This document shows, in pieces, positions 11,416 to 61,916 of a stretch of 64,000 nt of DNA; the stretch's first letter is position 1; every line of letters starts with the position of its first letter. The notes beneath the pieces were generated by a model. It had not been told where the DNA came from. It did not search any database and worked only from the letters and a program-made list of their open reading frames with translations. This DNA is from Hymenolepis diminuta (lineage: Eukaryota; Platyhelminthes; Cestoda; Cyclophyllidea; Hymenolepididae): assembly GCA_900708905.1 (NCBI GenBank), contig CAADRB010000001.1, forward strand, positions 2,062,051-2,126,050, read 5' to 3'. A program made the translations under genes and the position numbers.

Positions 11416-11421
11416 TTTATT
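11416..11421 (-). promoter_or_regulatory. Arb2-gene polyadenylation signal
   Basis: AATAAA on the - strand about 107 nt beyond the proposed stop at 11528, consistent with that stop being the real end of the gene. Confidence 0.45.
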
Positions 11422-11527
11422 CCGTATTCTCAATTCACCTTCAGTCTTCAACCTTGCTCTATCAAGGAATCTGACCGTCAAATGTCACGTAGTACTCAGG
11501 CGATCACCAATCACATGCAGCCAATCT

Positions 11528-11566
11528 TTATAAGGAAAAACCACTGATATGGTAGGAGAGACAGTT
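11528..11566 (-). CDS. ARB2A: Arb2 gene terminal exon
   Basis: Acceptor gtatgctgtag; phase 0; reads N-C-L-S-Y-H-I-S-G-F-S-L then TAA. Following W-F-M-E in the preceding exon it lines up with R-E-W-M-R-E-N-C-C-N-W-V-S-S in vertebrate ARB2A. The family normally continues for several dozen residues, so this end is early or another terminal exon was missed. Confidence 0.5.
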   Translation of the reverse strand, partial: NCLSYHISGFSL

Positions 11567-14500: not shown

Positions 14501-17500
14501 TGAGTAAATGCTCCTAGAGCCACTCTAACGAGAAACACTCATTTTAAATTCACCCTCCCCTCCCACCGGATGTGATTGGTCATCCGCTCCATTGAGTTTA
14601 TTAATATGCATCGATCTCGTGATACTCGACTTATTAACCCCTCATCTATTGTTAAGGTTCCATTTACCGTCAACTTACGGAAGAGAATTATCCAAAGAGA
14701 GATGATTGAGATTAACAAAAGCCACGCGGTAGCCTCGCTTATGGGCTTCTTCAATAAGATTCTCTTGAGAAGCATTTTCGATATCTTCGGGAGTTACCTC
14801 TGACATAGACAGTAGGGTTGTATCCCAGACACCAGCAGTGCTAGGATTAGTTGATTGCAGCACTATGAGTAAGGGGCCCTTGTAGGCAAAAAAGTCCATT
14901 GAATGAAACACGTTCACACGCAGACCCTGACATTCGGCCAACTAAAAGGAAGCACAATAATCAGAGAATAAAATATTGAATATTAATTAAATTAAGTAAA
15001 TACTTAAAGGTGTTTAATTTACGGGAATCGCCGTGAATGCCATCCAATGACGCATGATCAGATTTCGTTGAATTAGTTTCATAGTCAACTGGAAAAAACG
15101 AATGAAGATATAAAATTAGTGTGAGATCAAGAGATTGATCTTTCACAACCGCTACCAACTTACGTTTGTGAATAACTCGTGTTCAAATTGTGTCTTTGGT
15201 CTTTCTTCACAGTTTAAGTCTGATAAGAGACGTTAATTAGCAGTTGAGTAGGTTTGCGTTACGATACAATAAAATTGGTGAAAATTTAAGCAAACAGCTG
15301 GATGCTATAATCTAGACTGGTTTAATTTGATTTTTTTGTCTATAATGATCTTGACACAATCTACACACGAATCGTCTTTAAAAGCAACAAAAATTCCATA
15401 AGTAGGTCCTCAACGTAGCTGGCCAAACGCAAAAACACGCCTACACACAGAGTGGACCAATGTTGAACCCGAACCTGAGAGATAAGCTTGGCAGTCGAAA
15501 ATATCAGGGCATATATTCTGCTTCATCCCATTCGATTGGGGTGAGGGATTGTGGTCATGGTGGCAAAGTGCTAACTTCCTTTCATACTTATATTTATATT
15601 TCTTAGTTCGTATTTCCATTTTTCATAAAACTATTTAGACTAGGTGGCGTAAATCTTGAATGTTCAATATTCCAGATAGAGATAGAACATATTCTGCAAA
15701 GACTCCGACAAATGGAGTCTAAGTTTTGCCTCCAAATAAATAATTTGGGTCTCTTAGGTGGTTATTAAGTCACATATCATTCTTATCGGTATGCGAACAC
15801 CTTCTGCACTTGGAAAGTTTGGACAAAGCTGATGGCGAGTTGACCTTCAATTGTCAATTCTACGGACAATCTTCTATTGCCCTTATCTTTATTTTAAAGA
15901 GATGACGTAGATCTATTTTCTTCCTGAGGAAGAATATTAAGTTTAAATTTATCATCTATATTAAAAACCAAATTTTATGCAATATTCATGATCTTTTTGT
16001 GATCATCTTGCCATAAATTTCTGTAAGCATGGATTTTGAATGCCGAATCCTTGAGATTTCCGTCAGAAAATATAATAATTCATAGGTTCTAGGACTGGAC
16101 AATAAGAATTTTTCATGAGGATAAGATGAAGAAGAGGTGACAATATTTAGAAGAGGAAAACGAAAATATATTCAGATAGTTGCAAGAGAGGATCCAGATA
16201 AGAAATAACCAGAGTGAGTTAGAGGAATCTTGCCAAACATTTGCCTTTCTAGCTTTGCGAACTTCACTATTCCATAATGTAAACAAGACAGACGATCTGA
16301 ATACTAATAATATGAGAGAATGGAGAAAAGAAGTCAGTCATATAAAAAGCAAAGGAGAAAATTATGCAAAGAAAAGTAGAGTCAGACAGTCTGGAGAAAA
16401 TGGAGAGAGAAAAATACATAAATAGCTTTATGCAGGGAAATAATCCATACGCAGAACAGAGTGGAAGAAGTTAAAAACTGGGCTAATTCAATAAGCAACA
16501 GTCGATAAGTATTGAGAAAGACCAAGGTCACTTTAAACTTATGTGGACATCTTTATAAGACGATAATTTTGCAGATCTTAACTCTCTCTTGCCATCCTAC
16601 CTTTTCATAATATTTCCAACCACGTAATGTTTATCAGATTAAGCAAGAAAACCGCCACATCTAGATGATAAGAATAATTATTTTTCTCGAAATTAATTAT
16701 TTAAATCCTTGTCTCAATATAGTCATACGTTACCCATTTATATTTCAAAATTCAGATAATATATATCAGATTTTTGGAATGAAATTGGTTTATTTACCGA
16801 TTAAATAAAAAAATTAGAAGAAGTATTAAGGGACTTACTGTTAGGTCTCCTGAAATCGATTTTGAGAGGAATTAGAATTTGACCTAAGAGCCATTGAACA
16901 TGGTGAGGTACTGGATACATCTCCAAGTTAAACAATTTAGGTGAAATGACTAGTATAGAGTAAGAAACGGTAGATGTTGGATTGTAGATAGAAAGTCAGT
17001 TTTACTGAGTTGTTATTTTTGTGACTTACAGATCACTCGGGCATTTGGGTAATTAGAAAGATAATACTTTGCTAATAATTTCCGGATCTGCCTCATATCA
17101 TCTAAGGCGTAAATTTAATTGAAAAATATTGTTAATTATAATACAAAAAATAGAAGTTGCTTAAAACATAAGTTTTGTCACGTTAACCTGGGTTTGTTTA
17201 AAAAATGACATGACTAACACGGAGTATATTTCATGATTACCTCTTCAAATAACCGCGAACTCAGAGCTGCACAGCTATAGGTTTGGTTCATGCAAAGTGA
17301 TTAAAAAATTATCAACTGTCATGAGATCATTATATAAATTTAAAGGCGGAAATGGTACATGACTCAATCTGTTGAAATTAATTGATCCAAAATGGGATTT
17401 CTCAGATGGGTTCTCGGAAAATTTCAAGGGATTTGTGAAATGCGTGATTATTAAAATACAAATTATTTCAAGCCGTAGCTCTTGAAAACCGATATTTGAT

Positions 17501-20500
17501 AGAGCTTTTGCCTAATCATCTTCAAAGCTTATGTCCATTAGCCAAATTACTATCAAAATATGTCATGGCATGGAAGTTTCTAGAAGATAATATCTGAGCT
17601 TCACTTTCCCTTCCCTCGGTATAGATATTTATTTCTTTCGAGCCTTTTACCCCATTGGCGAACCATATCTTTGAAAGTTAGAAAGTTATCCCCTAAAACT
17701 ATAGATACTATTTCAACACATACTCTGGTAATAATTCTGCTATAAATAGGAGTATTAATACTGAAAATGATTTTTCTTACCCACAGTTTTAATAAGACTA
17801 TTCATAGTGTATTCTGGAACTGCAAGAAAATAATAAATCTTCATTGAAGAATGATGTTAGTGTTCTAATTTTTCTATTTTCCCACATCTCCATTTACAGA
17901 TGTTTTCCACAATCAAACTAGATCTGCCCCAATTATTTAGAGTATGGAAATATGCAGCAGTAGCAAAGTAGAAAATTTAAGTAGATTGCAAAACCAAATC
18001 GAACATTTTCGTCGCGCCTGAACGGAGTTCACAGGTTACATCACTCGTGCACTGGATTGCCTATTGTTGATTGTTGATACGCGTGACTGAGAATTCAATA
18101 CTCCCCCAACAGCAAACATCGGCTGATCTAATCATCAGTCATTTCATATTGTTCAAATTCTGTTTAATCAAATTTAATTTGTAAATACTAAGTAGAGTTA
18201 TACCATGAATTACGGCCTAAGCAATTGCAGCTAGTATATCTCAGCGGTTAGTCTAAGAATTTATTATTTCCCAGGTATTACCATGTCATTAGCCATAAAT
18301 AACCTAATATTAAAATAAAGAAATTTAAGTTTCTACTAGTGATAAATGCTTAAATTTACTCTTCTTAAGGTAAGAAAGGGAATTTGAAGGTATTTGTTTG
18401 AGGACCAAGTCCTTTGATTGTCATGAGTAACAATCAATGCATGAAATATGTCGATAATGTACAAGGCCGAAAGCCGGTAAGATTAATCGTCACCACTATT
18501 CGGTTTGCAGGAGCTTCCATGGTGATTGGTTCATGCTTTTACGTCCGCATTCTATGAATACACTAATCCCACAATCTTTCCCACCTATTACTTCCATCAA
18601 ATCGCTACCATCGTTTTCTGACGTATCTAGGTCTTTACATGGAACCAGCACAATCAAAACCATCACCGACTTAGTAGATATTGATGATATTGTGCCGACA
18701 TCACTTAAGAAAATGATCTTCATTACATCATAAATAAGGTTTCAGTGCGCTCTTTAAATTCCAACACTAATTTCTTGAATTGATATTTCCTAAACTGTCT
18801 TCCCACATCTATAGAAGAAACAAGTTTTTCAAAACAGTTCGAAACTTGAGATTGGTCGTACCTAATTCTAAATAAAAGCAAATGGAAACCAGAATTCTAA
18901 ATGAACAGCGAAAGATTTATCCTTACAAGCAAGCCAACCTAATTTTAGTATTTTATACATTTATTATTAAAAGGAAATTACTAATAAATAATACCATTAA
19001 AGGTAAATTTTTAGAAAAATGCCCTAAAAAGGCGTTTTGGGCAAAATTAAAATTCAAGCCTCTTTAGAATTCTTAATTTAGCCCTGGAATTTAAAGTTCA
19101 TGTGATTTATCTATTGGTAATTCTTAAATTACTTACATTCATTTTCTCTGGCCTTCCCTCCAAAAGCTGTCACATTATAAAACATGGTATTTAACTGTAA
19201 TTTAATTAAAAGGGGTAATTTATTAATTATGTCAACCAATTTACCAAGATCAGGTAATTGAATGGGTTCTTTTAAATTGTGATAATTGTCCATTTGAGAG
19301 AGGACATCTAAGTGGTGGTACATAGCGAATATGAAGCAATCAGTCAAATAAGAAAAGTATTAAAAATTTTGCTTCATCAGTTTTACTTTATCATGCAATA
19401 ATTGAAGTAAAATTTTCTAAATGAGCAACAAAAGTGTATATAAAAAGAACCAAATTAGAGAATGAATCTACGAAATACCAGCAGAATGCGGTATAAAAAT
19501 GATTTTATGTACTCCTTTATAGAAAATTAAGTAGCCATTTACCCTAGATTGAAAGCCTACTGAATAAAGTAAACCTTTTAATCGAACTTCTGGATTCTCA
19601 ATTGAAAGTGCACACTTTTGCTTTAGCTGAAAATATCAATGGGAGGAGCCTCACACAGTAAGTTCAATTAGTAAATCTTTTTGATTTCCACCCATTTAGT
19701 GAAATCATAAAATGCACATCCTCTCAATTTGCAATCAAAATATGTATAAACTTTTCTGACATCACAGTGCTATTCTATCTGTGTAAAAATTTTACTTATA
19801 TCTTAGTTGCGCTTTTAGTCACATGTAGCATGCCTTCTTTAATACGTTCAAACGTTGTTGTGCTATGTACTAGTACCAACTGCTTTTAACTATAAGAAGC
19901 TATAAATAAGCCAAAATGACATAGCAAGTAATTAATTCAAACAATCAACAAGCCCGATACATCAAAAACAGATATTCTAATCCACGGCTCTGGTAATCAG
20001 TTACTGATGATTAGAAATTAGGACATCACAATTCCTCATCTCTTCCTTTCATGAGAATTTGGACAGCACAGACTTCCAGAATTCAAACGGACTAAGGCTT
20101 GTGACACCCTGCCTTTATTACCTAATTATCATTGATCCCTTCCGGATTTCATACTTTTTTGGACTCGTCTACCATTCTTCTTAGTTGAATTCTACTCGCA
20201 ACCGAAACTTGCAAAAGATTTTGACGCGCTCTGAGCAATAACAATAACAATGAAAGACGAAATTTGGCAAAATGCGCTGAATATTGTAAATAAATGAAAA
20301 GACAAATATTTCTCGAAAAAACAGAGGACTCAAATCGACCTGGATCTCACCTAATGGAAATTAGAATAGAACTTACTCCATTAATTATATATGCGAATCG
20401 GTGTGACAACTAGGGTCCATGAACAACAATGAAGATACTTGAAAAATACGAATTGTACTAACTTATTAAATATGTACTCTCCGTACCCAAATTTTTATAA

Positions 20501-53500: not shown

Positions 53501-56500
53501 CTCCATAGTGCCTCTGCTGCATTAATTCTGCCATTAAAACTCATTTTTAGTTATTACCAAATGAAATCTTAAATTTTTCTTTAGAAAAGGCCTCTACAAT
53601 CAAAATACTTAAACTTTAAATTATATATAATTACATAAGCGGTCCGTGTAAATGAATGTCGTAATTTAAAAGGAAACAGCTAGTTTTATTATCGTGCTAA
53701 TTTTAATATAATATTTTAAACGAGAAGTTTAAATCCAGAAACAAATAAACAATGGGCCTTTAGATGTTAAAAGTTTTATAAAAAATGAGAATAAATAATT
53801 ATTTAAATATTAGTTAAGTGATAAATTTATATATCCTATTGAGTTTTTCAGCTGAAATATCTTTTCAATTTCAATATTCTCATCCATTTATTTAACGAAG
53901 TGTTCAGATAAAGTACACATTACATATGCTTACAAATTAATTATTCAAACACGATATTTTAAAAAATTGTGCTTCAAGCCAATTAATTGAATTTCGAACT
54001 CTATGTACCCCATCATTTATCGATAAAAATTATAATATCAATAAATTTAGCGCCTAAATTATTTGACCAATGTTTGAAAATATTTCATTAAATAAATTAA
54101 ACCAGGTTGCATTCGTCATAGGCTTTTTATTTCAAATTTACACTTGCATGATTTTGTCAGCAGTTACTTTTAATACGAATAAAAATTAGGTTTAATAAAT
54201 TTACCCATGAGGTCTGAACATGATGTAGATGGGTCTTAAATCAGAAAAACATAAATTATTTTGTTACTGTGAATGAAAAGTTAATAATTTACTCGAAGTA
54301 ATAGACCTCTTACGTAATATTTCACAAGTTTCTACTAAGCCTCTAATATCTACAAAATTAAAAAATGTGTATATCAAGTTGCGGCAAGCGCACTCAATCT
54401 TTATCAATCATTAAAAACACTTCATAGCCGCAATTATTTTCAGGTGATATTTTGACTCCGCTCAACTGTTTTTCTGCCCACATATGTTCTTAAGCTACAA
54501 TACTGTCTTAAACTAAGATTGTACTTTTATTGAAAGTTTCATCCGATAGCTTTGCAAAAGGAGGACAGCTTCCAAACTCGTAAATATATTTCTGGATGTC
54601 TTCGGAGACCATTTACATGAATAAGTCCTTCATGATGTTAACGTTCATGAGACCTCGCACTCCTGCCGTCACAATCGTAATAATTATCTATTGAGACCCA
54701 TACCTGGCCTCGAACTCTTTGATATCGCATTCGTTGTGGTTGTCTGTCAAGATCCCATAGACCGAACTCTTTCTATATGTACATATATATCTCTATCCAT
54801 TTCCTTCTCTCCCGACCTGTGATCTTTCCCAAATAAACTCTACTCACCATTGTCTTGCGTTCTCTCCATATTACTGTGTGGTTAAGATCAAAAGGAACAG
54901 GAAGTGATTAGCTAGTGGTATGGATAGGGATTCAGAATCACTATCTAGACAATCATGAGCATCGAAAAATCGAAATCATTTATTTCCTGACCACATATCT
55001 ATTCAAAAATCCATTTTAAAAGAAACCCTCGATTATTCTTAAACGTTTTGGAGCCGCATAATAAAATTTTATTTGAATATTTGCTTCACGAATGTTAGAG
55101 AGTAAATTTAATTGAAGTGCTAACGATGAGTCAAAACGTAAACATATAATGTTCTTTATTATTGTTTTACCTAAAACCCACTTAACGTTATCCTAAACAA
55201 TATAACAAAAAATAAATAAAGTGATCCAATAAATTTAACATAAAGAAATTTACCTTCATTAGAATAAAGTGTCTTCGGGGGCGCTACAAGGCAAAAATTT
55301 TGCTGATAAACTTGTAACTAATACATTCACTTTCTACTACAGTTTTAATCGTCGTAATATTTGTAATAATAGTAACCTAATTTTTCATAAAACGAAATAA
55401 TATTTGCGGTGATATTAACGAATCTACATGGAAAATATGCCAAATTTATGTTTATAAGATGACAAATTCTGTAGAAAATATGCAATACGCTGTTTCGACT
55501 AAAATTTTAAACTTTATTACCATGTGCTTTTTTAATATATTATATATTTATATATATTATTTCATTATTATTAGTTCAAGATAAAAGACAGATTACACAC
55601 ATTGAGAAGAAGATATTTAAAAGAAATAAAGAAGAATAAAATTAACAACAAATTAAAAACACACATTTTGGTGTTGAACGTGAAGTCGACGGTCCTAAAA
55701 ACACAAAATGCAAAACAACTTTTAAAGAATTTCAAAATTGGCAAAAATTACTGGATCATTTTGACTTGTATTTAAAAAAATGAAACATTTTCAGAATCAT
55801 CGATTTTATTTCACTAAATTTTAGCCGAATAGGAAAATATATAAGATGTAAGTTGAACTAGCGAAAGAAATCGACTGATTATTTTCATGCAATATTTCGA
55901 TAAAAATTATAGAGCACAATTAAATATTAATCTTCCTCATAACAGGTTGCATAACAAAGATCTACTTTCAGTTAGTGGAGGTGGAACTTTAAAAATTGAT
56001 CCTACATTAAAGGAAATCAGTCTTTACTTGAGAAATACCATTTGTATTATTTTACCCTAATATCCATGCCATGAATACATCTAAATTTATATTTAGCATC
56101 TTCTCTGTAGCAGATATCAAACTAACATGACGTTTCCCTTATCCACTATCTATAATACATTTTCGGAATGAACAAGGCCCTCTAGATCACCTAAATTGTG
56201 TAGGTCTTCATGAATGCGTATTAGTTCACCACCTAATTAGAATATAACATGGTTCCTGATTACATTTTAAGTGTTTTAAAACTTAGAAACCTCAACTGAT
56301 TAATATTTGTTGTGTGATTTATTTAAAACAGAAAGTCTAAAAATAATCCAAGATTTTACAATTAACACATGTAAAATATCAGTTGGAATAAACCCCAATA
56401 CAATTACCTTCAATAAACGGATGAAACATCGATGGCTCTATAATATGGGGAAAAAAGGTTTCTTTCCAATTAACTTATTTACTCATTCAGACGACCTGCA

Positions 56501-59500
56501 TATTCTCATTAAATTATATAAAAAATATATTTTCGTAGTAATACTATGCCTAAATTTTGTATAAAGATGAAAGAAAAATCAGCAAGAAATATAAATTCAC
56601 TTAAAAATGTTGGAGGCGACGTTGTGATTTCTATACGGAAAGTAAGAAAACATGCCCATTTGATAAGAATTTATTTTGATAAAACAAAGATAAAAAGCCG
56701 CACTTTTTAGCGTTGAAGGTAAAGTCGATTTCCCTATAACCAAATGAAGCGAAATTTATTTAAAGTATTTTTGAATAAATTAGGCAATATTTTTGCAGAA
56801 TTTGTTATGCTGCTTTGGCTAATATACGAAAAATATCGGTAGAATCATTTATAATCTATAGTAGATTAGTAAAATAAAACTTAAGAAATAAAACTCTTCT
56901 ACTGACTATGTCATGCAATATTTTGATAAAAAGTATAGAGCTTAATTTTTATTATTAATCTTCCACACAACACGAAACTCATTAAAGACTTACTTTCAGA
57001 TTGTAGAGTAGGCACTTTAAAAGTTGGCTCTGAATTAAAGAGAATCGGTTCTTATAAAATACCATTAAGAATACTTTAACATTGATCTCTGGATACATTC
57101 GAATTTGTATGTCAGCATATCTTTCAGCTGTTTGAAGATTACAAGATTAACCTGGAATTCTCAATCTGTACAGTCACAATGTAGTTTAAGGATCAAATAA
57201 GTATGCCTTTTGAACAATAAGAAATCAACTAGATGAACTCTAATTTTCGTAATAAGTAGGGCTGTTTGAATCTCTTGAATATTATGTTACTTTCTGAATC
57301 TAGCCACTTTTTCCTTTAATTTGAATATGATACGATTCCCTGATCTTAAACTACTTTTTATTATATTTGAACTAAATTTTCTCTCTTTACATAAATAGTG
57401 AAAAACAACTATGAAATACAAAACTTGAGGTGAAAAAAAGGAGTGGATAGTACATCGATCTAATTTATCTAAGTTTACACGGCTTAATGTCTCATATGTG
57501 GCCCATCTATTTTTGCAATTGTAAACACCACATAACAATTTCTAGGTCGCCTGGGCCTAATCAGTCACAGAGTGACTCATGAAGTCGACAAAGCCAGATA
57601 GCCTCTCTAAGCGTACTTGGTTGAGCCTTTAAACATTATGTCACTTTCATGCATGCTATTTAGACGAATAATCCAGTTCTCCATCCTACATCTCTCCCTC
57701 CACTCTGTTCTCTGCAATCTTCCAATACACCACAGGTCCACCGCAATTCTCGTTCTTCTGATTTCAGCAAGGTAGAAGGTCCCTGTTAGTCTTTAAGATC
57801 ATTAAATTCTAAAGGGGAAACCTCGATCAGATTAAACATGTAGCTTTACTTTGGATTACTGGTACTCTACCAAGAGTTTTAGTTGGTTGTAGTTTTCCAA
57901 ATAAAAGTGAAACTTTCCATTAAAATGTTTTAAAATGGTACCATATTATTATCCCTACTTATTCTAATCACCCTTATCAACAACTAATATAAAAGGAAAT
58001 GCAGTAACATACGAGCTTTCACGGTTGGCTCTCTAATAACCTCTGAAAAAGATAGAAATTCAAGGGTTTAAATACTAATTAAGAGGTAACAAAAGGTGAA
58101 ATCGAATAATTTGATTTACTAATTATTTTTGCCATCGGATCAACCGGAGGTGCCACTGAAAGCAAAGATAATTTCTGAATTTATTCAAGAATATAATTTG
58201 TAACTGTTGAAAAGCAGAATTCTCAAACTAACTCTTCCTATGTTCGACAATAAACTTTGTTATATTGTCATCTTCACCATCTGGCGGGAAATAGTGATAT
58301 CATGACGCTGAATCAAAAATAAGTAGTACAAAATTGTGGCATTCGACTCACATGCAGCAAGGGGAGTATCAGGACTGGAGGAAACATGAATAGTTTCCAT
58401 GATGTCCTCAAGGGACGACATCATTTTAGGATGTTCAGTAGCTGTAGTAGAAAAGTGTTAGAAAGAAATTGAGAGGAAAAATTGTGCTCTTTTAGCTCAT
58501 TCGCAAGGAAAACTTTTTGTATTTAAACTTGCCCTAACCTCAACCCAATTATAATAAGCTAGCTTTTCCCAATTTTTCAGCCCGGACCAATTGGACGTTA
58601 AATATTGGAAGTTATGAGAATTAAGCCTTTAATCAATCCATAAACTCACTCATATGCCCATTTCAGTTACTTTCTATAATAATTATTTATTTTCTATTAA
58701 CTCTTTTCTGTTGTTATTCGGCGTGGTAGAAATAAATATTTGTTAAGGGATATCCCATAGAAAAGGCAATATAGAATGAAATAAAACATAAAGATCTCAA
58801 AGAGTATAAAATTGGAAGAATGGACCAAGAAGAATTAAAGAGTACATCCCATTGACTCATGCTCCGTCCGTCCGAATGAGTCCGTACTGGCTGACGAAAT
58901 AGCAACGTACTTGGTGGTTTACAGAGTCATTTTTATACAAATATATCTGTCGGTCTAACTAAAACAAGTTAATTCATAGCATAAAAATAATCCATTTATC
59001 GAAATCGATATAACCTTTCACTCCATAGGACTGATTTAACATTTNNNNNNNNNNNNNNNNNNNNNNNNNNNNNNNNNNNNNNNNNNNNNNNNNNNNNNNN
59101 NNNNNNNNNNNNNNNNNNNNNNNNNNNNNNNNNNNNNNNNNNNNNNNNNNNNNNNNNNNNNNNNNNNNNNNNNNNNNNNNNNNNNNNNNNNNNNNNNNNN
59201 NNNNNNNNNNNNNNNNNNNNNNNNNNNNNNNNNACACCTCACAATAGGAAGGAGACAGAGACGGTATTAAAAAATTGCTATTAGGAGTTTTGACTGAGTG
59301 AACTCTAATCAGCTCTGCTATATTAGAACCATTCTACTTCCTCGTTTTTGGAATAAAAGTAATTCGAAGTGGTAAGACAACAGGTCAATAAGCAATGGGC
59401 ATCGTGAACAAGAATTCGCTCAGTAATGCAGGGGTAGAATCATGATATTTGAATTTTGGAATGTGAAGTAGTGATACGCCCACTAAGTTAATATTTTACA

Positions 59501-61661
59501 ACCCGATTTCAAAAGTTGGATGCAGTAAGACTCGTTTGATTCCCAGACTTTATTCTCAATCTTTTCTCCATTCTCCCCTTTATTCCTTATAAGACTTACT
59601 GTAACCCACCTTCATTTGCTTTCCAGTAATGAAAAAATTATTTTTTTTGCCTTGCCTTAGGTTGTGATATAAAGAAATAACAGATGTTTCATTCTCGTAA
59701 CTATTGAGTAATGTTCCAATTACAGAAATTGGATAATAGGAGATTCGATAAAGCAACTCAAACGCTGAGGGGTTGGGCACTGATAGAACATAGTTAAATT
59801 TGAAATTTGAAAGGGAGAATACTAGGATAAACAGATAACCAAATTAAGATGATAATTAGTAGAGGAAAAACCTAAAGGATAATAAATATCACTGAATTAA
59901 CTGAGTTAATATATGAACTTCTAAAAATAGCATTGATTGTTCCAGTCTACCTCTTTCTAGCAAAGATTACTTCAAACAAACAAACCACGACGTTATCTAA
60001 AACATTGGCCATTATTCCAGGGTTAAAAACATTTGAGAATTAAAATATAGCAACTTACGTGATGCACCCCCGCTTTTCTTTCCCCCATGTGGACCGATTG
60101 CTTCCACTGACGAGAAAAATGTTAATCGTCAATAGAGGGGAATTAATGAAATCCCAATGCAGAGCAGAAAATATTTCTAACAAAATGATATTCTGCGAGG
60201 GATATCTAATTTAACATATAAGTGGTCTTATAAAGTATATTTACTGCAGGATTATTGCAACTTAAGCGGAAATCAGGGGACACTTTCATAACAAGCTCAC
60301 GTTATATCATCCCTCCTGCTGATCAGAATTAACTAGTATAGTTAGCAACTCACATCACTAGATGTGCACTAATAAAGACAAACCTCATGGCCCTTGACTT
60401 TGCAGACGTGCATGTTTACCGCTTCCGTCAATCTTGAATACAAGATCACAATTAGAATCAAAGGGGTTCCAAAGCAACCTTATTTATCGCATTCATATTT
60501 GAGCCTAATCAATCTGCCAATTAGAACAATATTCTTAGGTCTTTAAGAAGAAGATTACAGTGACTCTAGAAGCGCCATCTTCACGTTAATCACATCTCTT
60601 TCAATCAAAAATGAGAATTAGGAAGAAAACAGCAAAAAACACGAGCAAACGAGATTTATGAAAAAACCATTTGCTTGCAACTTACGTATCGCCTCTAAAA
60701 TTTATTTCAAATTTGGTTATTATTTTATTTAATAATTGTAATAATACGTAGCTGACGTCTCTTTTACTCAGTACACCCACGACAGCTTCTGAACTGATGC
60801 AATTTTAACCTATTCTCCTCCCGTTACTGTTGACTGCCTATTAGAAACAGCTGCTCTAAATAAGTGCATTTAGCTCCTCTCTCCCGGCTCTCTATCTTGA
60901 GACTGCGTTTAGACGAGCTTTAGCTGCAATAGCTCTCCGATTACCAGTTGAATAATGTACACGTTCCAGTTAGAAGTAGGAAGCGCTAATCCCTGCATGA
61001 ATATCATCATTCCCGACTATTTTCAGCCTTACTTTGATGAAAGCTCGCCGACTCTTAAAATTTCTAGTCGAGAGATAACATCGAGTTCATCTCCCAACAC
61101 ATTCCACTGAAACACTTTTCTGTCTATCCTATTTCCAGTTATCTTTTTTTCACTTAACCAACAAAACTCGGCTCCAAGTTGAATGTTGTTTATCCACAGC
61201 TTTACGACTAATTACCCCACACAAGCGTTAGATGTTCAAACTATTCTTCTACCAACACCCTTATAAGTATACCGTTAAGGAGTCAAAACGAGTCTAAAAG
61301 CTTCATTGGGGTTCATGAATTCATTTGTTGATCACTTATTCCCCATAAATTTCCTTCGATAAATAAGCTGCCTCAGAGTAATCAATGCTTATAAATTCTT
61401 TTTTTTCTAAGGTCTGAGTCAAGTGTAACTGTAGCTACTTTCTTTCGGTTTTCTTGACACTAAAACTTAAGATCAGCATATTTTATGATGCTACAATACT
61501 TCGGAAGAATATCAAGACATAGTCGCCTCCGATTTCAAAACAAACCTACCAGAAGTGAATGAAAACGGTTCGATCGGAACACGAGATGCTCTACGACCAA
61601 CTGCTTTTTCCATTTCCGACGAAGATTTCGATTCAGTATGTTCTGGTGTTGTAGGCTCCAT
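11528..61661 (-). CDS. Giant micro-exon gene ending in an Arb2-like domain (gene-level)
   Basis: About 76 exons across 50 kb, total about 3.1 kb of coding sequence. The N-terminal part is built from a 112-nt first exon and about 67 micro-exons, all of length divisible by three and all phase 1-1. The C-terminal part (exons 15164-15219 to 11528-11566) has mixed phases and encodes an Arb2-like domain. That domain is known from animal ARB2A/FAM172A, yeast Arb2 (Argonaute-binding) and the C-termini of fungal class II HDACs, and has an alpha/beta-hydrolase-like fold. No signal peptide is evident at the proposed start, so the protein is probably intracellular. The tail is Ser/Thr/Pro/Lys/Glu-rich and probably disordered. 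Every exon was chosen by eye from splice sites and frame, so individual exons may be wrong or alternatively used. Whether one transcript contains all of them is unknown. Confidence 0.7.
11808..12037 (-). CDS. ARB2A: Arb2-like domain exon, nucleophile-elbow region
   Basis: Acceptor ttttttgtgcag, donor gtaagt; 230 nt, phase 1 to 0. Reads N-E-V-A-S-S-E-E-C-L-Q-A-W-I-D-R-A-L, then K-V-K-A-I-A-F-I-A-P-S-D-H-I-I-Q-T-I, then P-E-K-V-R-N-W-F-M-E. This parallels S-P-E-E-H-A-I-Y-V-W-D-H-F, N-V-F-F-V-A-H-S-Y-G-G and K-T-I-R-E-W-M-R-E of ARB2A. The canonical H-S-Y-G-G elbow is replaced by P-S-D-H-I, so hydrolase chemistry looks unlikely. Confidence 0.8.
12107..12183 (-). CDS. ARB2A: Arb2-like domain exon, charged insert
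   Basis: Acceptor atttcttttag, donor gtatat; 77 nt, phase 2 to 1. Encodes N-E-K-A-P-K-V-F-K-F-K-S-H-E-K-K then S-D-E-F-I-S-S-D-E, a Lys/Glu-rich loop at the place where ARB2A carries its own charged, variable insert. Phases join perfectly to both neighbours. Confidence 0.8.
12184..14003. other. Intron of Arb2 gene with repeat and unexplained + open frame
   Basis: Intron of 1.8 kb. The segment 13051-13300 resembles 59382-59600, so it is a dispersed repeat. A + open frame at 13474-13716 is described under findings. No further - strand exon is needed, because phases already join. Confidence 0.45.
14004..14176 (-). CDS. ARB2A: Arb2-like domain exon
   Basis: Pyrimidine-rich acceptor cctcttgtattttaag, donor gtgagt; 173 nt, phase 0 to 2. 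Reads S-R-L-N-N-E-E-R-F-A-Q-I-W-E-N-L-I-T-L, then K-I-A-L-W-I-H-R-Q, ending W-D-P-K-N-I-F-L-P-K-F. An alternative acceptor 30 nt upstream (14206) would also keep frame. I cannot assign it to a precise Arb2 element. Confidence 0.7.
14265..14400 (-). CDS. ARB2A: Arb2-like domain exon
   Basis: Acceptor tttctttgcttag, donor gtaaga; 136 nt, phase 2 to 0. Reads L-N-Y-T-Y-R-G-N-Y-A-T-L-N-C-D-I-A-P then K-A-Q-K-N-E-Y-T-A-R-V-Y. Its phases bridge the two neighbouring Arb2 exons exactly, which is the main support. Confidence 0.7.
14679..14941 (-). CDS. ARB2A: Arb2-like domain core exon
   Basis: Acceptor tccttttag, donor gtaagt; 263 nt, phase 0 to 2. This exon identifies the domain: V-F-H-S-M-D-F-F, then G-P-L-L-I-V-L-Q-S-T-N-P-S-T-A-G-V-W, then E-E-A-H-K-R-G-Y-R-V-A-F-V-N-L-N. 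It parallels F-I-F-M-S-E-D-A-L, K-L-M-V-L-I-H-G-S-G-V-V-R-A-G-Q-W and A-E-G-Y-G-V-I-V-L-N-P-N of ARB2A. The H-G-S-G oxyanion motif is replaced by Q-S-T-N. Confidence 0.85.
15023..15088 (-). CDS. ARB2A: Arb2-like domain N-terminal exon
   Basis: Acceptor gttttttccag, donor gtaaat; 66 nt, phase 0-0. Ends H-W-M-A-F-T-A-I-P, matching the L-K-K-V-S-I-P that precedes the core strand in ARB2A. The exon is also open in phase 1 (D-Y-E-T-N-S-T-K-S-D-H), but that frame does not continue into the core exon. Confidence 0.65.
15164..15219 (-). CDS. ARB2A: Transition exon from micro-exon array to Arb2-like domain
   Basis: Acceptor ctcttatcag, donor gtaagt; 56 nt, phase 1 to 0. This exon converts the constant phase 1 of the array into phase 0 of the domain. 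Reads L-N-C-E-E-R-P-K-T-Q-F-E-H-E-L-F-T-N, reminiscent of the helical Q-K-R-Y-E-A-L-G region of ARB2A. Confidence 0.7.
15220..16838. other. Intron, includes GC-richer repeat-like block
   Basis: Intron of 1.6 kb. The 15405-15590 block is GC-richer than its surroundings and looks like a dispersed repeat. A purine-rich + frame at 16180-16425 (81 aa, Lys/Glu/Asn-rich) is not recognisable and probably spurious. Confidence 0.35.
16839..16883 (-). CDS. Micro-exon, 45 nt
   Basis: Phase 1-1, acceptor ctcttag, donor gtaagt. Peptide QILIPLKIDFRRPN, hydrophobic and basic, unlike the Ser/Pro-rich array peptides, so it may already belong to the folded part. Confidence 0.6.
17030..17071 (-). CDS. Micro-exon, 42 nt
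   Basis: Phase 1-1, acceptor attattag, donor gtaagt. Peptide KYYLSNYPNARVI, Tyr/Asn-rich; like its neighbour it looks structured. Confidence 0.6.
17781..17813 (-). CDS. Micro-exon, 33 nt
   Basis: Phase 1-1, strong acceptor tgcagttccag, donor gtaaga. Peptide YTMNSLIKTV. A weaker in-frame 18-nt candidate lies at 17651-17668. Confidence 0.6.
18448..18733 (+). CDS. Possible small nested gene with a 34-nt intron
   Basis: Opposite strand to the host intron. Exons 18448-18476 and 18511-18733 join in frame across a gtaag...tttgcag intron of only 34 nt, giving 83 aa ending in TAA. The sequence is Ser/Thr/Pro-rich, with F-P-P-I-T-S-I-K-S-L-P-S-F-S-D then T-D-L-V-D-I-D-D-I-V-P-T-S-L-K-K-M. I do not recognise it. 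It could be a retrocopy fragment. Confidence 0.3.
19137..19166 (-). CDS. Micro-exon, 30 nt
   Basis: Phase 1-1, acceptor gtgacag, donor gtaagt. Peptide FGGKARENE. Confidence 0.65.
20793..20825 (-). CDS. Micro-exon, 33 nt
   Basis: Phase 1-1, acceptor attttag, donor gtaagt. Peptide NSYQVSVFHG. A same-length candidate at 20377-20409 has a stop in this phase. Confidence 0.65.
22234..22257 (-). CDS. Micro-exon, 24 nt
   Basis: Phase 1-1, acceptor tgtttag, donor gtaatt. Peptide MNGSNGK. Confidence 0.6.
23516..23551 (-). CDS. Micro-exon, 36 nt
   Basis: Phase 1-1, acceptor gttttag, donor gtaaat. Peptide NFLKNKPSKLS. Confidence 0.6.
23621..23635 (-). CDS. Micro-exon, 15 nt
   Basis: Phase 1-1, acceptor caatgcag, donor gtaagt. 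Peptide MRTP; the 3' half resembles the exon at 43433-43450. Confidence 0.6.
23926..23955 (-). CDS. Micro-exon, 30 nt
   Basis: Phase 1-1, acceptor cctttag, donor gtaagt. Peptide PMKSDSESL; the exon is GC-richer than the surrounding intron. Confidence 0.7.
25662..25694 (-). CDS. Micro-exon, 33 nt
   Basis: Phase 1-1, acceptor tttttcag, donor gtgagt. Peptide LSNQTSIAGK, paralogous to LSNKSPDAVF at 40668-40700 (same length and start). Confidence 0.65.
25767..25781 (-). CDS. Micro-exon, 15 nt
   Basis: Phase 1-1, acceptor ctctcag, donor gtaagt. Peptide EMQQ; its 3' end resembles that of the exon at 31925-31948 (GIQKGQQ). Confidence 0.55.
26859..26906 (-). CDS. Micro-exon, 48 nt
   Basis: Phase 1-1, acceptor attttgtag, donor gtatgg. 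Peptide GLETEASNGTYLCVP. A longer open frame overlaps this interval in another phase but has no splice support. Confidence 0.65.
26980..26997 (-). CDS. Micro-exon, 18 nt
   Basis: Phase 1-1, acceptor attcattcag, donor gtatca. Peptide KLCHE. A 12-nt in-phase candidate (FSG) follows upstream at 27091-27102. Confidence 0.5.
27197..27238 (-). CDS. Micro-exon, 42 nt
   Basis: Phase 1-1, acceptor gaaatttag, donor gtaagt. Peptide SKKLLIKSCVFEC. Confidence 0.55.
27515..27538 (-). CDS. Micro-exon, 24 nt, GC donor
   Basis: Phase 1-1, acceptor acccgtag; the donor is G|gcaagt, a GC-AG intron. Peptide KSKSSSQ, related to KYKSKKF at 27731-27754. Confidence 0.55.
27731..27754 (-). CDS. Micro-exon, 24 nt
   Basis: Phase 1-1, acceptor ttttaag, donor gtaagc. 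Peptide KYKSKKF; likely tandem paralogue of the exon 200 bp downstream. Confidence 0.5.
28875..28904 (-). CDS. Micro-exon, 30 nt
   Basis: Phase 1-1, acceptor gttttcag, donor gtaaac. Peptide SPLLKADDP. Confidence 0.65.
29407..29436 (-). CDS. Micro-exon, 30 nt
   Basis: Phase 1-1, acceptor ttctttag, donor gtaagt. Peptide SAQIETTEY; GC-richer than the intron around it. Confidence 0.7.
29675..29698 (-). CDS. Micro-exon, 24 nt
   Basis: Phase 1-1, acceptor tttatctag, donor gtaaag. Peptide RRWKIFI; its composition is atypical for the array, so less certain. Confidence 0.45.
   Translation of the reverse strand, partial: KDAGRFL
30528..30548 (-). CDS. Micro-exon, 21 nt
   Basis: Phase 1-1, acceptor aattttcag, donor gtaaat. 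Peptide SFSTES. Confidence 0.6.
31786..31818 (-). CDS. Micro-exon, 33 nt
   Basis: Phase 1-1, acceptor caaatttag, donor gtaagt. Peptide RNTEILPFIS, in a three-member family with 32788-32820 and 37627-37659 (same length, same position of the Asn-Thr/Asn-Pro pair). Confidence 0.7.
31925..31948 (-). CDS. Micro-exon, 24 nt
   Basis: Phase 1-1, acceptor cactgacag, donor gtaaat. Peptide GIQKGQQ. Confidence 0.5.
32788..32820 (-). CDS. Micro-exon, 33 nt
   Basis: Phase 1-1, acceptor acctttag, donor gtaagt. Peptide ENTDLFQIMT; paralogue of 31786-31818, 1.0 kb away. Confidence 0.7.
33845..33877 (-). CDS. Micro-exon, 33 nt
   Basis: Phase 1-1, acceptor attttag, donor gtaaaa. Peptide SSPESPMGFG, Ser/Pro-rich. 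Confidence 0.65.
34233..34250 (-). CDS. Micro-exon, 18 nt
   Basis: Phase 1-1, acceptor tctatccacag, donor gtaagc. Peptide LNYLV. Confidence 0.5.
36600..36620 (-). CDS. Micro-exon, 21 nt
   Basis: Phase 1-1, acceptor cgattaaag, donor gtaagt. Peptide SSTLQS. Confidence 0.6.
37627..37659 (-). CDS. Micro-exon, 33 nt
   Basis: Phase 1-1, acceptor aaattttag, donor gtaagt. Peptide QNPLLSQHLK; third member of the 33-nt family at 31786 and 32788. Confidence 0.7.
38580..38609 (-). CDS. Micro-exon, 30 nt
   Basis: Phase 1-1, acceptor actttccag, donor gtaaat. Peptide SPPSRPSKS; GC-rich against an AT-rich intron. Confidence 0.72.
40343..40363 (-). CDS. Micro-exon, 21 nt
   Basis: Phase 1-1, acceptor tcatttgag (a GAG acceptor), donor gtaagt. 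Peptide SSSNSS. Confidence 0.55.
40668..40700 (-). CDS. Micro-exon, 33 nt
   Basis: Phase 1-1, acceptor tatttttag, donor gtaagt. Peptide LSNKSPDAVF; paralogue of LSNQTSIAGK at 25662-25694. Confidence 0.7.
42040..42060 (-). CDS. Micro-exon, 21 nt
   Basis: Phase 1-1, acceptor aaattgtag, donor gtaagt. Peptide PLSMGP. Confidence 0.6.
43433..43450 (-). CDS. Micro-exon, 18 nt
   Basis: Phase 1-1, acceptor cccgtttag, donor gtaagt. Peptide EPSTP; shortened relative of ESQPLTP at 44417-44440. Confidence 0.65.
43690..43713 (-). CDS. Micro-exon, 24 nt
   Basis: Phase 1-1, acceptor aatttag, donor gtaagt. Peptide KLMKSPK. Confidence 0.6.
44417..44440 (-). CDS. Micro-exon, 24 nt
   Basis: Phase 1-1, acceptor tattttag, donor gtatat. 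Peptide ESQPLTP. Confidence 0.65.
46045..46068 (-). CDS. Micro-exon, 24 nt
   Basis: Phase 1-1, acceptor gttctctag, donor gtaact. Peptide DVLLSNS. Confidence 0.6.
47349..47375 (-). CDS. Micro-exon, 27 nt
   Basis: Phase 1-1, acceptor cgaaatag, donor gtattc. Peptide EKISSSMK. Confidence 0.6.
47456..47479 (-). CDS. Micro-exon, 24 nt
   Basis: Phase 1-1, acceptor ttctaaaag, donor gtgagg. Peptide ETQNQSN. Confidence 0.6.
47562..47588 (-). CDS. Micro-exon, 27 nt
   Basis: Phase 1-1, acceptor ataaattag, donor gtaact. Peptide SGSQNPQS; nucleotide-level paralogue of 49047-49073 (PGSQDAKT), sharing the run tggttctcaa. Confidence 0.75.
47665..47688 (-). CDS. Micro-exon, 24 nt
   Basis: Phase 1-1, acceptor taatctaaag, donor gtaaat. 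Peptide GSSSKEL. Confidence 0.6.
   Translation of the reverse strand: MDPLPKN
48092..48103 (-). CDS. Micro-exon, 12 nt
   Basis: Phase 1-1, acceptor gttctgtag, donor gtacgt. Peptide QTS. Shortest included; short length makes chance matches more likely. Confidence 0.4.
48191..48214 (-). CDS. Micro-exon, 24 nt, GC donor
   Basis: Phase 1-1, acceptor tttaaatag; donor G|gcaagt (GC-AG). Peptide RSRSPSP, an RS-type basic/phosphorylatable motif. Confidence 0.65.
48301..48324 (-). CDS. Micro-exon, 24 nt
   Basis: Phase 1-1, acceptor atttcacag, donor gtatgt. Peptide DIRKTSK. Confidence 0.65.
48786..48809 (-). CDS. Micro-exon, 24 nt
   Basis: Phase 1-1, acceptor ttaataaag, donor gtaggt. Peptide KPQVESC. 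Confidence 0.6.
49047..49073 (-). CDS. Micro-exon, 27 nt
   Basis: Phase 1-1, acceptor atgaatcag, donor gtaaat. Peptide PGSQDAKT; paralogue of 47562-47588. Confidence 0.75.
50233..50256 (-). CDS. Micro-exon, 24 nt
   Basis: Phase 1-1, acceptor aaatatag, donor gtaatt. Peptide QPLTRPS. Confidence 0.65.
50410..50442 (-). CDS. Micro-exon, 33 nt
   Basis: Phase 1-1, acceptor tttaatag, donor gtaagg. Peptide HHDEYFEFPP. Confidence 0.65.
50517..50582 (-). CDS. Array exon, 66 nt
   Basis: Phase 1-1, acceptor cccttttag, donor gtaaaa. Peptide begins QSSRTPKKPT and continues VLFSEDEETEK: a basic Pro/Lys stretch followed by an acidic L-F-S-E-D-E-E cluster. One of the most clearly coding-looking exons in the array. 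Confidence 0.8.
51185..51205 (-). CDS. Micro-exon, 21 nt
   Basis: Phase 1-1, acceptor aaaattag, donor gtgagc. Peptide KGEILA; its 3' end is similar to the exons at 51569 and 51909. Confidence 0.55.
51331..51360 (-). CDS. Micro-exon, 30 nt
   Basis: Phase 1-1, acceptor atgagcag, donor gtcagt. Peptide QPGGVSSGE. An alternative donor gtgaag six bases earlier keeps frame (24 nt). Confidence 0.65.
51569..51595 (-). CDS. Micro-exon, 27 nt
   Basis: Phase 1-1, acceptor attttatag, donor gtatgg. Peptide AFRSTKLA; paralogue of IYQSGGLA at 51909-51935. Confidence 0.72.
51793..51810 (-). CDS. Micro-exon, 18 nt
   Basis: Phase 1-1, acceptor tgttttag, donor gtaaaa. Peptide RGEYD. Confidence 0.5.
51909..51935 (-). 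CDS. Micro-exon, 27 nt
   Basis: Phase 1-1, acceptor atattatag, donor gtatgt. Peptide IYQSGGLA; tandem paralogue 340 bp from 51569-51595. Confidence 0.72.
52164..52193 (-). CDS. Micro-exon, 30 nt
   Basis: Phase 1-1, acceptor gataattag, donor gtacgt. Peptide SISLNRPER. Confidence 0.65.
52404..52433 (-). CDS. Micro-exon, 30 nt
   Basis: Phase 1-1, acceptor ttttaatag, donor gtaagg. Peptide ESTDKYESD, acidic. Confidence 0.7.
52658..52687 (-). CDS. Micro-exon, 30 nt
   Basis: Phase 1-1, acceptor attaatag, donor gtatgt. Peptide SAESQPTPP; starts identically to 52908-52940 (same acceptor context and S-A). Confidence 0.75.
52908..52940 (-). CDS. Micro-exon, 33 nt
   Basis: Phase 1-1, acceptor tttaatag, donor gtatat. 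Peptide SAPKRRHSHS, strongly basic, a possible nuclear-localisation element. A weaker 24-nt in-phase candidate (donor gtgcgg) lies at 52758-52781. Confidence 0.75.
54205..54234 (-). CDS. Micro-exon, 30 nt
   Basis: Phase 1-1, acceptor gatttaag, donor gtaaat. Peptide PSTSCSDLM. Confidence 0.65.
54640..54895. repeat. Possible LTR/TRIM-like repeat block
   Basis: A GC-richer island between array exons, about 250 bp, with an internal AATAAA near 54832 and sharply different composition from the flanking intron. No second copy was found in this window, so the identity is tentative. Confidence 0.3.
55254..55283 (-). CDS. Micro-exon, 30 nt
   Basis: Phase 1-1, acceptor gccttgtag, donor gtaaat. Peptide PPKTLYSNE, similar in layout to P-K-K-P-T-V-L-F-S-E in the 66-nt exon at 50517. 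Confidence 0.75.
55665..55694 (-). CDS. Micro-exon, 30 nt (duplicated pair A)
   Basis: Phase 1-1, acceptor gtttttag, donor gtgtgt. Peptide PSTSRSTPK; clear paralogue of KSTLPSTLK at 56704-56733, with homologous flanks. Confidence 0.7.
55966..55986 (-). CDS. Micro-exon, 21 nt (duplicated pair B)
   Basis: Phase 1-1, acceptor tttttaaag, donor gtagat. Peptide PPPLTE; paralogue of PTLQSE at 56994-57014. Confidence 0.65.
56601..56630 (-). CDS. Micro-exon, 30 nt
   Basis: Phase 1-1, acceptor tccgtatag, donor gtgaat. Peptide ITTSPPTFL. Confidence 0.7.
   Translation of the reverse strand, partial: KSQRRLQHF
56704..56733 (-). CDS. Micro-exon, 30 nt (duplicated pair A)
   Basis: Phase 1-1, acceptor gttatag, donor gtgcgg. 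Peptide KSTLPSTLK; paralogue of 55665-55694 at an offset of 1,039 bp. Confidence 0.68.
56994..57014 (-). CDS. Micro-exon, 21 nt (duplicated pair B)
   Basis: Phase 1-1, acceptor cttttaaag, donor gtaagt. Peptide PTLQSE; paralogue of 55966-55986 at an offset of 1,028 bp. Confidence 0.68.
58013..58042 (-). CDS. Micro-exon, 30 nt
   Basis: Phase 1-1, acceptor ctttttcag, donor gtatgt. Peptide VIREPTVKA. Confidence 0.7.
58120..58155 (-). CDS. Micro-exon, 36 nt
   Basis: Phase 1-1, acceptor gctttcag, donor gtaaat. Peptide APPVDPMAKII. Confidence 0.7.
58352..58441 (-). CDS. Array exon, 90 nt
   Basis: Phase 1-1, acceptor ttctactacag, donor gtgagt. Longest of the symmetric exons: starts TEHPKMMSSLEDIMETIHV and ends S-S-P-D-T-P-L-A-A. 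The first half could form a short amphipathic helix. Strong splice sites and coding-like composition. Confidence 0.82.
58733..58850. repeat. Dispersed repeat, copy of 4784-4900
   Basis: About 115 bp with recognisable similarity to the ENT-intron segment, including the shared string tggaccaagaag in the same orientation. Family unknown. Confidence 0.45.
59045..59233. other. Assembly gap (N run)
   Basis: 189 undetermined bases inside the intron between the 90-nt and 48-nt exons. An additional micro-exon could be hidden here. Confidence 1.
59382..59600. repeat. Dispersed repeat, copy of 13051-13300
   Basis: Shares an ordered series of short matches with 13051-13300, including tggtcaata-like start, tcgctcag, gaattttgga and tctccattct-like end, in the same orientation. 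Confidence 0.45.
60059..60106 (-). CDS. Array exon 2, 48 nt
   Basis: Phase 1-1, acceptor ttttctcgtcag, donor gtaagt. Peptide VEAIGPHGGKKSGGAS, Gly/Lys-rich. A possible additional 9-nt in-phase exon with a good donor (gtaagt) lies at 60686-60694. Confidence 0.75.
60318..60366. repeat. Dispersed repeat, copy of 1704-1755
   Basis: Core string tgatcagaattaac is identical in both copies and the following 35 bases match in most positions, down to gatgtg. A weaker third relative may lie near 35530-35575. Confidence 0.5.
61550..61661 (-). CDS. First coding exon of the giant micro-exon gene
   Basis: ATG at 61659-61661; donor gtaggt gives a phase-1 end, matching the whole array. Reads MEPTTPEHTESKSSSEMEKA, then V-G-R-R-A-S-R-V-P-I-E-P-F-S-F-T-S. 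No signal peptide. A good acceptor (ttcgtgctaatag) lies 10 nt before the ATG, so the ATG may sit just inside a spliced or trans-spliced exon. An in-frame stop occurs about 30 nt upstream. Confidence 0.7.
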
Positions 61662-61915: not shown

Positions 61916-61916
61916 T

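What the first reader, a model, noticed from the sequence alone, without database searches (positions are those of the whole stretch)
16839..60106. A 43-kb train of about 67 symmetric micro-exons in one gene
On the - strand I could pick out about 67 intervals of 12-90 nt, each preceded by an acceptor-like site and followed by a donor-like site. All have lengths divisible by three and are open in the same codon phase (1-1), and many are GC-richer than the flanking intron. I partly selected for frame, so bias exists. However, splice-site pairs I noticed with wrong length or stops were far fewer (about ten), where chance predicts roughly two failures per success. All these exons lie between one ATG exon ending in phase 1 and an Arb2 exon entering in phase 1. 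The layout is that of schistosome micro-exon genes, at unusually large scale.
Basis: partly seen in the sequence, partly recalled or inferred. Interest (0 to 1): 0.95.

Follow-up and report, generated by a model that had tools for sequence, protein, structure and literature searches.

The report
Giant tapeworm gene of tiny exons
A gene of the rat tapeworm Hymenolepis diminuta is chopped into at least 48 consecutive tiny exons that all keep the same reading frame, and it is predicted to run on through about 20 more into a conserved domain, so that the worm could likely add or drop small protein pieces by splicing.

Summary
The window lies on a contig of 6,937,183 bases, the length of the contig that carries P0124, an unnamed H. 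diminuta protein of 502 residues. P0124 tiles onto the minus strand from 58,424 to 40,535: 476 of 502 residues, 49 introns each with a unique solution, hence 48 consecutive symmetric phase-1 exons of 15-66 nt with both ends fixed and a 49th with its acceptor fixed. Splice scores trained on these exons find the same pattern in the half not covered by P0124 (40,500-17,110): a chain of 31 exons, against at most 14 in 16 flank segments and 15 in 40 simulations; about 23 should be real. The train then reaches exons of an Arb2-like protein found in H. microstoma, Rodentolepis and Anoplocephala, whose first exon is entered in phase 1 and lacks a conserved start codon. I think train and domain form one gene of about 51 kb; that join is inferred. 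By gene structure it meets the published tapeworm definition of a micro-exon gene (MEG). It differs in scale (S. mansoni MEGs: 10-20 exons), in lacking an evident signal peptide, and in its likely C-terminal domain. Aphid 'megacycle' genes (118 exons) are larger.

The parts
61550..61661 (-). Predicted first coding exon (ATG, 112 nt, phase 0 to 1), about 500 bases after the stop codon of the upstream reading frame
   Evidence: one of 3 rows listed in 58,440-62,400 with an ATG, phase-1 exit and donor score above 3; for boundaries. Predicted only.
60059..60106 (-).
   Evidence: not in P0124
58352..58441 (-). Exon that holds the start of the deposited protein (ATG at 58,424; 73 coding nt in that model); with its acceptor at 58,441 it would be 90 nt, phase 1-1
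40535..58280 (-). 49 consecutive symmetric phase-1 micro-exons (15-66 nt, median 27; introns 70-1604, median 125) that encode P0124; both ends fixed by the protein for 48, acceptor only for the last (40,535-40,558); coordinates in the full report
   Evidence: tiling of 476 of 502 residues; each of 49 introns unique; lengths, GC
55966..56001 (-). Further candidate micro-exon, 36 nt, a tandem duplicate of exon 56,994-57,029, open in phase 1 with intact splice sites; absent from P0124
40343..40363 (-). 21-nt exon; P0124 matches these 21 bases in phase 0 (VLRQIRP), the train predicts phase 1 (SSSNSS)
17781..40465 (-). Second half of the train: 31 predicted phase-1 micro-exons (18 with weight >=3; 40,343-40,363 is one of them), of which about 23 are expected to be real
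17030..17101 (-). First conserved exon of the Arb2-like protein, 72 nt, phase 1-1
16839..16949 (-).
15164..15219 (-). Third conserved exon, 56 nt, phase 1 to 0; ends the phase-1 run
15023..15088 (-). Fourth conserved exon, 66 nt, phase 0-0
14679..14941 (-). Exon with the weak Pfam Arb2 match (PF22749, 20.1 bits, cut-off 26.8), 263 nt, phase 0 to 2
10017..14122 (-). Remaining exons of the Arb2-like protein: matches at about 14,015-14,122, 12,238-12,315, 12,107-12,183, 11,808-12,037, 10,183-10,276 and about 10,017-10,087

Best explanation
This is a micro-exon gene of the tapeworm Hymenolepis diminuta in which 48 consecutive symmetric phase-1 exons of 15-66 nt encode most of a deposited protein, and it is predicted to run on through about 20 more such exons into an Arb2-like domain. 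Because every one of these exons is a multiple of three and is entered and left after the first base of a codon, subsets could be skipped without shifting the frame (this follows from the sequence; skipping itself is not shown). The likely product is a long, Ser/Pro/Lys/Glu/Thr-rich, probably disordered N-terminal region of variable length on a conserved C-terminal domain of about 350 residues, likely kept inside the cell because no signal peptide is evident. Short introns (28 of 49 are 150 nt or less) suggest recognition by intron definition, which would let exons too small for exon definition be spliced (inferred). The train seems to have grown in part by tandem duplication of exon plus flanking intron: two such pairs are still recognisable, and a symmetric phase-1 exon can be copied without harm to the frame. 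Shown: the exons, phases, deposited protein and duplications. Inferred: the second half as transcribed exons, the join to the Arb2-like exons, and combinatorial splicing.
For: Tiling of 476 of 502 deposited residues by a start exon and 49 phase-1 exons, each of the 49 introns with a unique solution within 12 nt of sliding, on a contig whose length equals that of the window's contig. The genome paper (PMC6890685, passages) mapped RNA-seq with STAR and used BRAKER2 and MAKER2 with Trinity transcripts; one tiled intron is GC-AG, which such gene finders accept mainly when reads support it (recalled). Continuation into the half not used for training: 31 chained exons against at most 14 in 16 flank segments and 15 in 40 simulations; at score >=4, 26 of 31 pairs divisible by three are open in phase 1, against 15 and 13 in phases 0 and 2 and 7 of 15 on the plus strand. 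One gene: H. diminuta exons 17,030-17,101, 16,839-16,949, 15,164-15,219, 15,023-15,088 and 14,679-14,941 join in frame into a protein collinear with H. microstoma P0121. P0121 and P0122 start MYALDD, which aligns to the bases of the acceptor itself (TACGCCTTAG|AT); H. diminuta has ATT there with a TAA just upstream, so the start codon is not conserved and the exon looks internal, entered in phase 1 like the train. Duplications: 56,994-57,029 with 55,966-56,001 (73% over 174 nt) and 49,047-49,073 with 47,562-47,588 (67% over 176 nt). Leader: maximum 11-residue hydropathy in the first 40 residues 0.35.
Against: P0124 as deposited leaves the phase-1 path after 40,535 and ends at about 40,189, far from the Arb2-like exons. 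No other species' protein matched the train among the candidates of about 370-1176 residues that were scored, none from the close relative H. weldensis, so conservation of the micro-exons is unshown. The concatenation of all 81 exons still holds one junction stop in the second half, so that part of the model is imperfect. The Arb2 match is below Pfam's cut-off, and AlphaFold2 on three sequences gave pLDDT 31. No reads were seen.
Confidence: 0.7

Rival explanations
1. Two neighbouring genes on one strand: a large micro-exon gene from about 61.7 kb to about 17.8 kb, and an independent Arb2-like gene from about 17.1 kb to 10.0 kb with its own start in an unseen or trans-spliced 5' exon.
For: H. 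microstoma, Rodentolepis and Anoplocephala Arb2-like proteins are deposited without any micro-exon part, and an in-frame Met (EMYP; MYP in Anoplocephala, which starts there) is shared by all four species in the second exon. Tapeworms use spliced-leader trans-splicing (PMC7653826, passages).
Against: In H. microstoma and Rodentolepis, coding similarity extends upstream of that Met across a phase-1 intron, and no Met is conserved at the head of the first exon. The first two Arb2-like exons are symmetric phase 1-1 like the train, and the last strong micro-exon (17,781-17,819) lies about 680 nt upstream.
Confidence: 0.2
2. The functional micro-exon gene ends near 40.2 kb as deposited, and the second half is a graveyard of decayed or chance exon-like pieces.
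For: The deposited model ends there; one junction stop in the all-exon concatenation; exon density is lower in the second half: 31 chained exons in 23.4 kb against 51 in 18 kb.
Against: Decay would not keep phase 1 specifically: 31 exons in phase 1 against 15 and 9 in the other phases, and 18 against 1 and 2 at weight >=3. P0124 matches exon 40,343-40,363 in another frame and holds the residues RMI that follow if the preceding donor is read through, which looks like a gene-finder slip, though I did not resolve that tail.
Confidence: 0.12
3. The train is a chance pattern picked out by a reader who selected for frame.
Against: Frame-blind tests with matrices trained outside the window and the tiling of a deposited protein with unique introns.
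Confidence: 0.02

Closest known systems
Micro-exon genes (MEGs) of Hymenolepis microstoma, 52 reported (PMC7653826)
   Same: Same genus; exons under 70 nt and divisible by three in long runs; the published criteria are met, with a run of 48.
   Different: The passages that I read give no exon counts per gene, and the supplementary list could not be read, so I cannot say whether the orthologue is among the 52. By inspection P0124 does not begin with the leader motif of the tandem family described there.
Schistosoma mansoni MEG families (PMC10526429, PMC5825161)
   Same: Short symmetric exons make up most of the coding sequence; in-frame skipping possible.
   Different: S. mansoni MEGs have 10-20 very short exons and encode secreted or membrane-anchored proteins; here 48-49 are tiled and about 70 estimated, no signal peptide is evident, and a conserved domain probably follows. 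No sequence match among the candidates scored.
Aphid bicycle and megacycle genes (PMC9168663)
   Same: Trains of same-phase micro-exons that start at codon position 2, the same phase class as here; the megacycle gene shown has 118 exons over about 100 kb; growth by internal duplication.
   Different: Insect salivary effector candidates with a secretion signal and internal repeats; here exon peptides resemble each other no more than shuffled ones (4 pairs at score >=20, mean 4.2 in 30 shuffles) and no leader is seen. Likely convergent gene structure.
Arb2 / FAM172 family (Pfam PF22749)
   Same: Weak match of exon 14,679-14,941 (20.1 bits) and of P0121 (19.0 bits).
   Different: Below the cut-off of 26.8 bits in every protein that matched; no fold confirmation.

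Membership tests
Tapeworm MEG (definition in PMC7653826) | At least seven exons, micro-exons (<70 nt, divisible by three) at least half of all, and a run of at least four | tested here: met
   49 of 50 tiled exons are 15-66 nt, divisible by three and consecutive (48 with both ends fixed by the protein)
Schistosome MEG | Most of the coding region in short symmetric exons | tested here: met
   1356 of 1429 tiled coding nt in P0124; lengths up to 66 exceed the 6-36 nt quoted in PMC5825161. With the Arb2-like exons added the share would fall.
Schistosome MEG | Secreted or membrane-anchored product with signal peptide | tested here: not met
   no hydrophobic stretch in the first 40 residues of P0124 nor in the predicted upstream ATG exon; simple hydropathy only, no SignalP; 189 N at 59,045-59,233 could hide an exon
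Schistosome MEG | Protein variants from exon skipping | not testable with these tools
   no reads or proteomics available
Schistosome MEG | Sequence similarity to a named MEG family | tested here: not met
   only P0124 itself matched at E <= 10; only the 7983 candidates sharing most words, of about 370-1176 residues, were scored, so short MEGs were outside the search
Aphid bicycle/megacycle | Same-phase micro-exons starting at codon position 2 | tested here: met
   against PMC9168663 (passages)
Aphid bicycle/megacycle | N-terminal secretion signal | tested here: not met
   with the limits given above
Aphid bicycle/megacycle | Repeating internal motif | tested here: not met
   pairwise exon peptide scores no higher than shuffled; two exon duplications only at E <= 1e-3
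Arb2 domain (PF22749) | Profile match above the curated cut-off | tested here: inconclusive
   20.1 bits (H. diminuta exon), 19.0 (P0121), 12.7 (P0122) and none (P0123), against 26.8

The most novel reading that the evidence does not exclude
One 51-kb tapeworm gene in which about 70 symmetric phase-1 micro-exons form a splice-tunable disordered arm of an intracellular Arb2-like protein: a MEG-type variation engine moved from secreted antigens onto a conserved, non-secreted domain.
Probability: 0.5. Interest if true: 0.78.

Novelty: new variant of a known kind. Interest (0 to 1): 0.62.

Why it matters
It would be several times larger than the 10-20-exon MEGs of S. mansoni and would separate the micro-exon design from secretion. 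It offers a laboratory-tractable tapeworm locus in which to ask how a run of 15-33-nt exons is recognised, and whether symmetric micro-exons evolve for protein variation or merely spread because they do no harm. It also warns that flatworm annotations may cut such genes: the deposited H. diminuta model stops midway, and two relatives' models seem to begin on splice-acceptor bases. The same phase class arose in aphid effector candidates, which makes convergence testable.

Tried and rejected
Half-against-half training from generic matrices gave a weak signal, e.g. at score >=8 only 1 of 7 test pairs divisible by three in one direction; few seeds (6 and 9). Organism by COX1 in the assembly: none found (8 of 14 control genomes rang). 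A spliced-leader pattern recalled for Echinococcus: no match. 18S rRNA: not completed. First spliced alignment of P0124 by exact path failed, probably because its last 26 residues leave the phase-1 pattern; replaced. The tail itself stayed unresolved. PF15230 (SRRM_C, microexon splicing factor by recollection) in the assembly: no match, but no control rang either, so uninformative. Arb2 in the assembly: likewise uninformative. AlphaFold2 of the Arb2-like protein: pLDDT 31, so no fold search was run. PDB sequence search with P0121: 0 matches. Rfam: 0 matches in the window. Plasmid collection: no match, not a sensible target. I considered aphid bicycle genes before the organism was known; rejected as a family by taxon, repeat and leader tests. 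My first chain placed an exon at 16,839-16,883 and read 15,023-15,088 in phase 1; both were re-modelled.

Full report
What the window is. A U2AF2 reading frame in a flank (L013) is 99% identical to the Hymenolepis weldensis protein. The window's contig has 6,937,183 bases; a deposited H. diminuta protein, P0124, lies on a contig of exactly that length, and the H. diminuta genome paper reports a longest scaffold of 6,937 kb (PMC6890685, passages). I conclude that the window is H. diminuta.

Is the pattern real? A generic scan gave, at score >=2 for each site, 19 of 32 minus-strand pairs divisible by three (15 open in phase 1) against 2 of 14 on plus. With matrices trained on 24 long exons of the flanks, 47 of 75 minus pairs were divisible by three against 22 of 49 on plus; among non-overlapping pairs 37 of 54 (p = 1.4e-7) against 14 of 31 (p = 0.12). 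In the same call the phase-1 chain counted 30 exons, phase 0 gave 25 and phase 2 gave 19 (short exons are often open in several phases), the plus strand 6-7, and 60 Markov simulations in phase 1 at most 14. Results against: a half-against-half test from generic seeds was weak, and one plus-strand threshold gave 14 of 24 (p = 0.01).

The deposited protein. A search with 33 predicted micro-exons plus three Arb2-like pieces returned four proteins: P0121 (H. microstoma), P0122 (Rodentolepis nana), P0123 (Anoplocephala perfoliata) and P0124 (H. diminuta, 'unnamed protein product'). P0124 tiles on the minus strand, 476 of 502 residues, as 58,352-58,424 followed by 49 exons, each symmetric and phase 1-1: 58233-58280, 58120-58155, 58013-58042, 56994-57029, 56704-56733, 56601-56630, 56408-56437, 55665-55694, 55254-55283, 54314-54349, 54205-54234, 52908-52940, 52758-52781, 52658-52687, 52544-52558, 52404-52433, 51909-51935, 51793-51810, 51569-51595, 51442-51459, 51331-51360, 51185-51205, 50517-50582, 50410-50442, 50233-50256, 50088-50111, 49910-49942, 49047-49073, 48891-48923, 48786-48809, 48301-48324, 48191-48214 (GC donor), 48092-48115, 47665-47688, 47562-47588, 47456-47479, 47349-47375, 47061-47084, 46045-46068, 44417-44440, 43690-43713, 43539-43556, 43433-43450, 43320-43343, 43057-43083, 42174-42191, 42040-42060, 40668-40700, 40535-40558. 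The tiling was sought under the assumption of phase-1 symmetric exons; afterwards each of the 49 junctions was slid by up to 12 nt either way, and none had another AG with GT or GC solution that gives the same protein. So 48 exons have both ends fixed and the last has its acceptor fixed. The last 26 residues were not tiled: RMI is what follows if the donor of exon 40,535-40,558 is read through, then the protein matches exon 40,343-40,363 in phase 0 and stops near 40,189. The paper's pipeline used RNA-seq mapping, BRAKER2 and MAKER2; I saw no reads.

The second half. Matrices trained on the 49 exons were applied to 17,110-40,500, which was not used in training. At score >=4: 31 of 57 minus pairs divisible by three, 26 of those 31 open in phase 1 (15 and 13 in phases 0 and 2); plus strand 15 of 43, 7 of 15 open in phase 1; both strands of the 200 kb of flanks 216 of 593, 99 of 216 open in phase 1. 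Among non-overlapping pairs at score >=3 the counts are 32 of 61 (23 open in phase 1) on minus and 15 of 36 (7) on plus. The chained model has 31 exons, 18 with weight >=3: 40343-40363, 38580-38609, 37627-37659, 36772-36810, 36600-36632, 33839-33877, 32788-32820, 31925-31963, 31786-31818, 30528-30548, 29407-29436, 28875-28904, 27832-27852, 26859-26906, 25858-25902, 20793-20825, 20541-20561, 17781-17819. Controls: 16 flank segments of equal length mean 8.2, max 14 (weight >=3: mean 2.1, max 6); 40 simulations max 15 (weight >=3: max 5). So about 23 of the 31, and about 16 of the 18, should be real. With 49 tiled exons this gives roughly 65-75.

The Arb2-like end. P0121 and P0122 align to 17,114-10,017 and 17,114-11,793. 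Exons 17,030-17,101 (72 nt) and 16,839-16,949 (111 nt) are both phase 1-1; 15,164-15,219 changes phase 1 to 0; then 15,023-15,088 and 14,679-14,941. Joined, they read through in a frame collinear with P0121. Pfam Arb2 scores 20.1 bits for exon 14,679-14,941, 19.0 for P0121 and 12.7 for P0122, cut-off 26.8, and does not match P0123, hence 'Arb2-like'. P0121 and P0122 begin MYALDD; in H. diminuta the aligned bases read ATT TAC GCC TTA G|AT with TAA just upstream. I read these as the splice acceptor of an internal exon. No start codon is conserved there, so the coding sequence most likely enters from upstream in phase 1, where the phase-1 train lies.

The start. The upstream gene (TBCK by my recollection of its C-terminus; Pfam gave nothing for the exons tested) has a stop at 62,166-62,168. 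A predicted ATG exon 61,550-61,661 leaves in phase 1, followed by 60,059-60,106 and 58,352-58,441. The deposited start at 58,424 lies inside the last of these.

Anatomy and mechanism. Introns between the tiled exons: 70-1604 nt, median 125, 28 of 49 at most 150 nt; exons GC 0.417, introns 0.285; composition of the 476 residues S 14.7%, P 10.5%, K 9.2%, E 8.6%, T 7.8%; SP/TP pairs 14 against 11.2 expected, no marked excess. No second copy was found in the assembly (two matches, both in this gene; a search without introns sees only the longer exons). Two tandem duplications of exon with flanking intron survive; otherwise exon peptides are no more alike than shuffled ones (4 pairs at score >=20, mean 4.2 in 30 shuffles). 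These facts fit a gene that grew by insertion and duplication of frame-neutral exons and could be spliced in many in-frame forms.

Comparison. H. microstoma has 52 reported MEGs under a definition that this gene meets (PMC7653826, passages and outline). S. mansoni MEGs have 10-20 short exons (PMC10526429, passages) and encode secreted or anchored proteins almost without exception (PMC5825161, passages). The aphid megacycle gene shown has 118 exons (PMC9168663, section 12), and bicycle exons start at codon position 2 as here (same paper, passages). Search listings 9, 10, 54, 71, 72 and 78 showed no title or abstract on this gene; the H. microstoma supplementary list was not readable, so an orthologue may already be counted there.

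Noticed in passing
window 55966-56001 and 56994-57029; 47562-47588 and 49047-49073: Two tandem duplications of a micro-exon with its flanking introns (73% over 174 nt and 67% over 176 nt), all four copies open in phase 1.
   Followed up: yes
window 48189-48190 (minus): One tiled exon (48,191-48,214) is followed by a GC donor (GCAAGT), a GC-AG intron.
   Followed up: partly
window 62169-63835 (minus) and L011: End of an upstream gene that looks like TBCK (kinase-like and rhodanese-like parts; name from memory, no Pfam match of the exons tested).
   Followed up: partly
window 5358-5560 (plus): Exon of an equilibrative nucleoside transporter (PF01733, E = 4.5e-12).
   Followed up: no
P0121, P0122 N-termini against window 17101-17114: Deposited H. 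microstoma and Rodentolepis nana models seem to start on the bases of a splice acceptor, i.e. their true N-termini are probably missing.
   Followed up: partly
P0122: UniRef names this Rodentolepis protein 'Nucleolar protein 6'; the only Pfam hit found was a weak Arb2 match (12.7 bits).
   Followed up: no
window 59045-59233: A run of 189 N inside the 5' part of the gene could hide a further exon.
   Followed up: no
window 40186-40558 (minus): The last 26 residues of P0124 could not be tiled with canonical splice sites; part of them matches a predicted micro-exon in another frame.
   Followed up: partly
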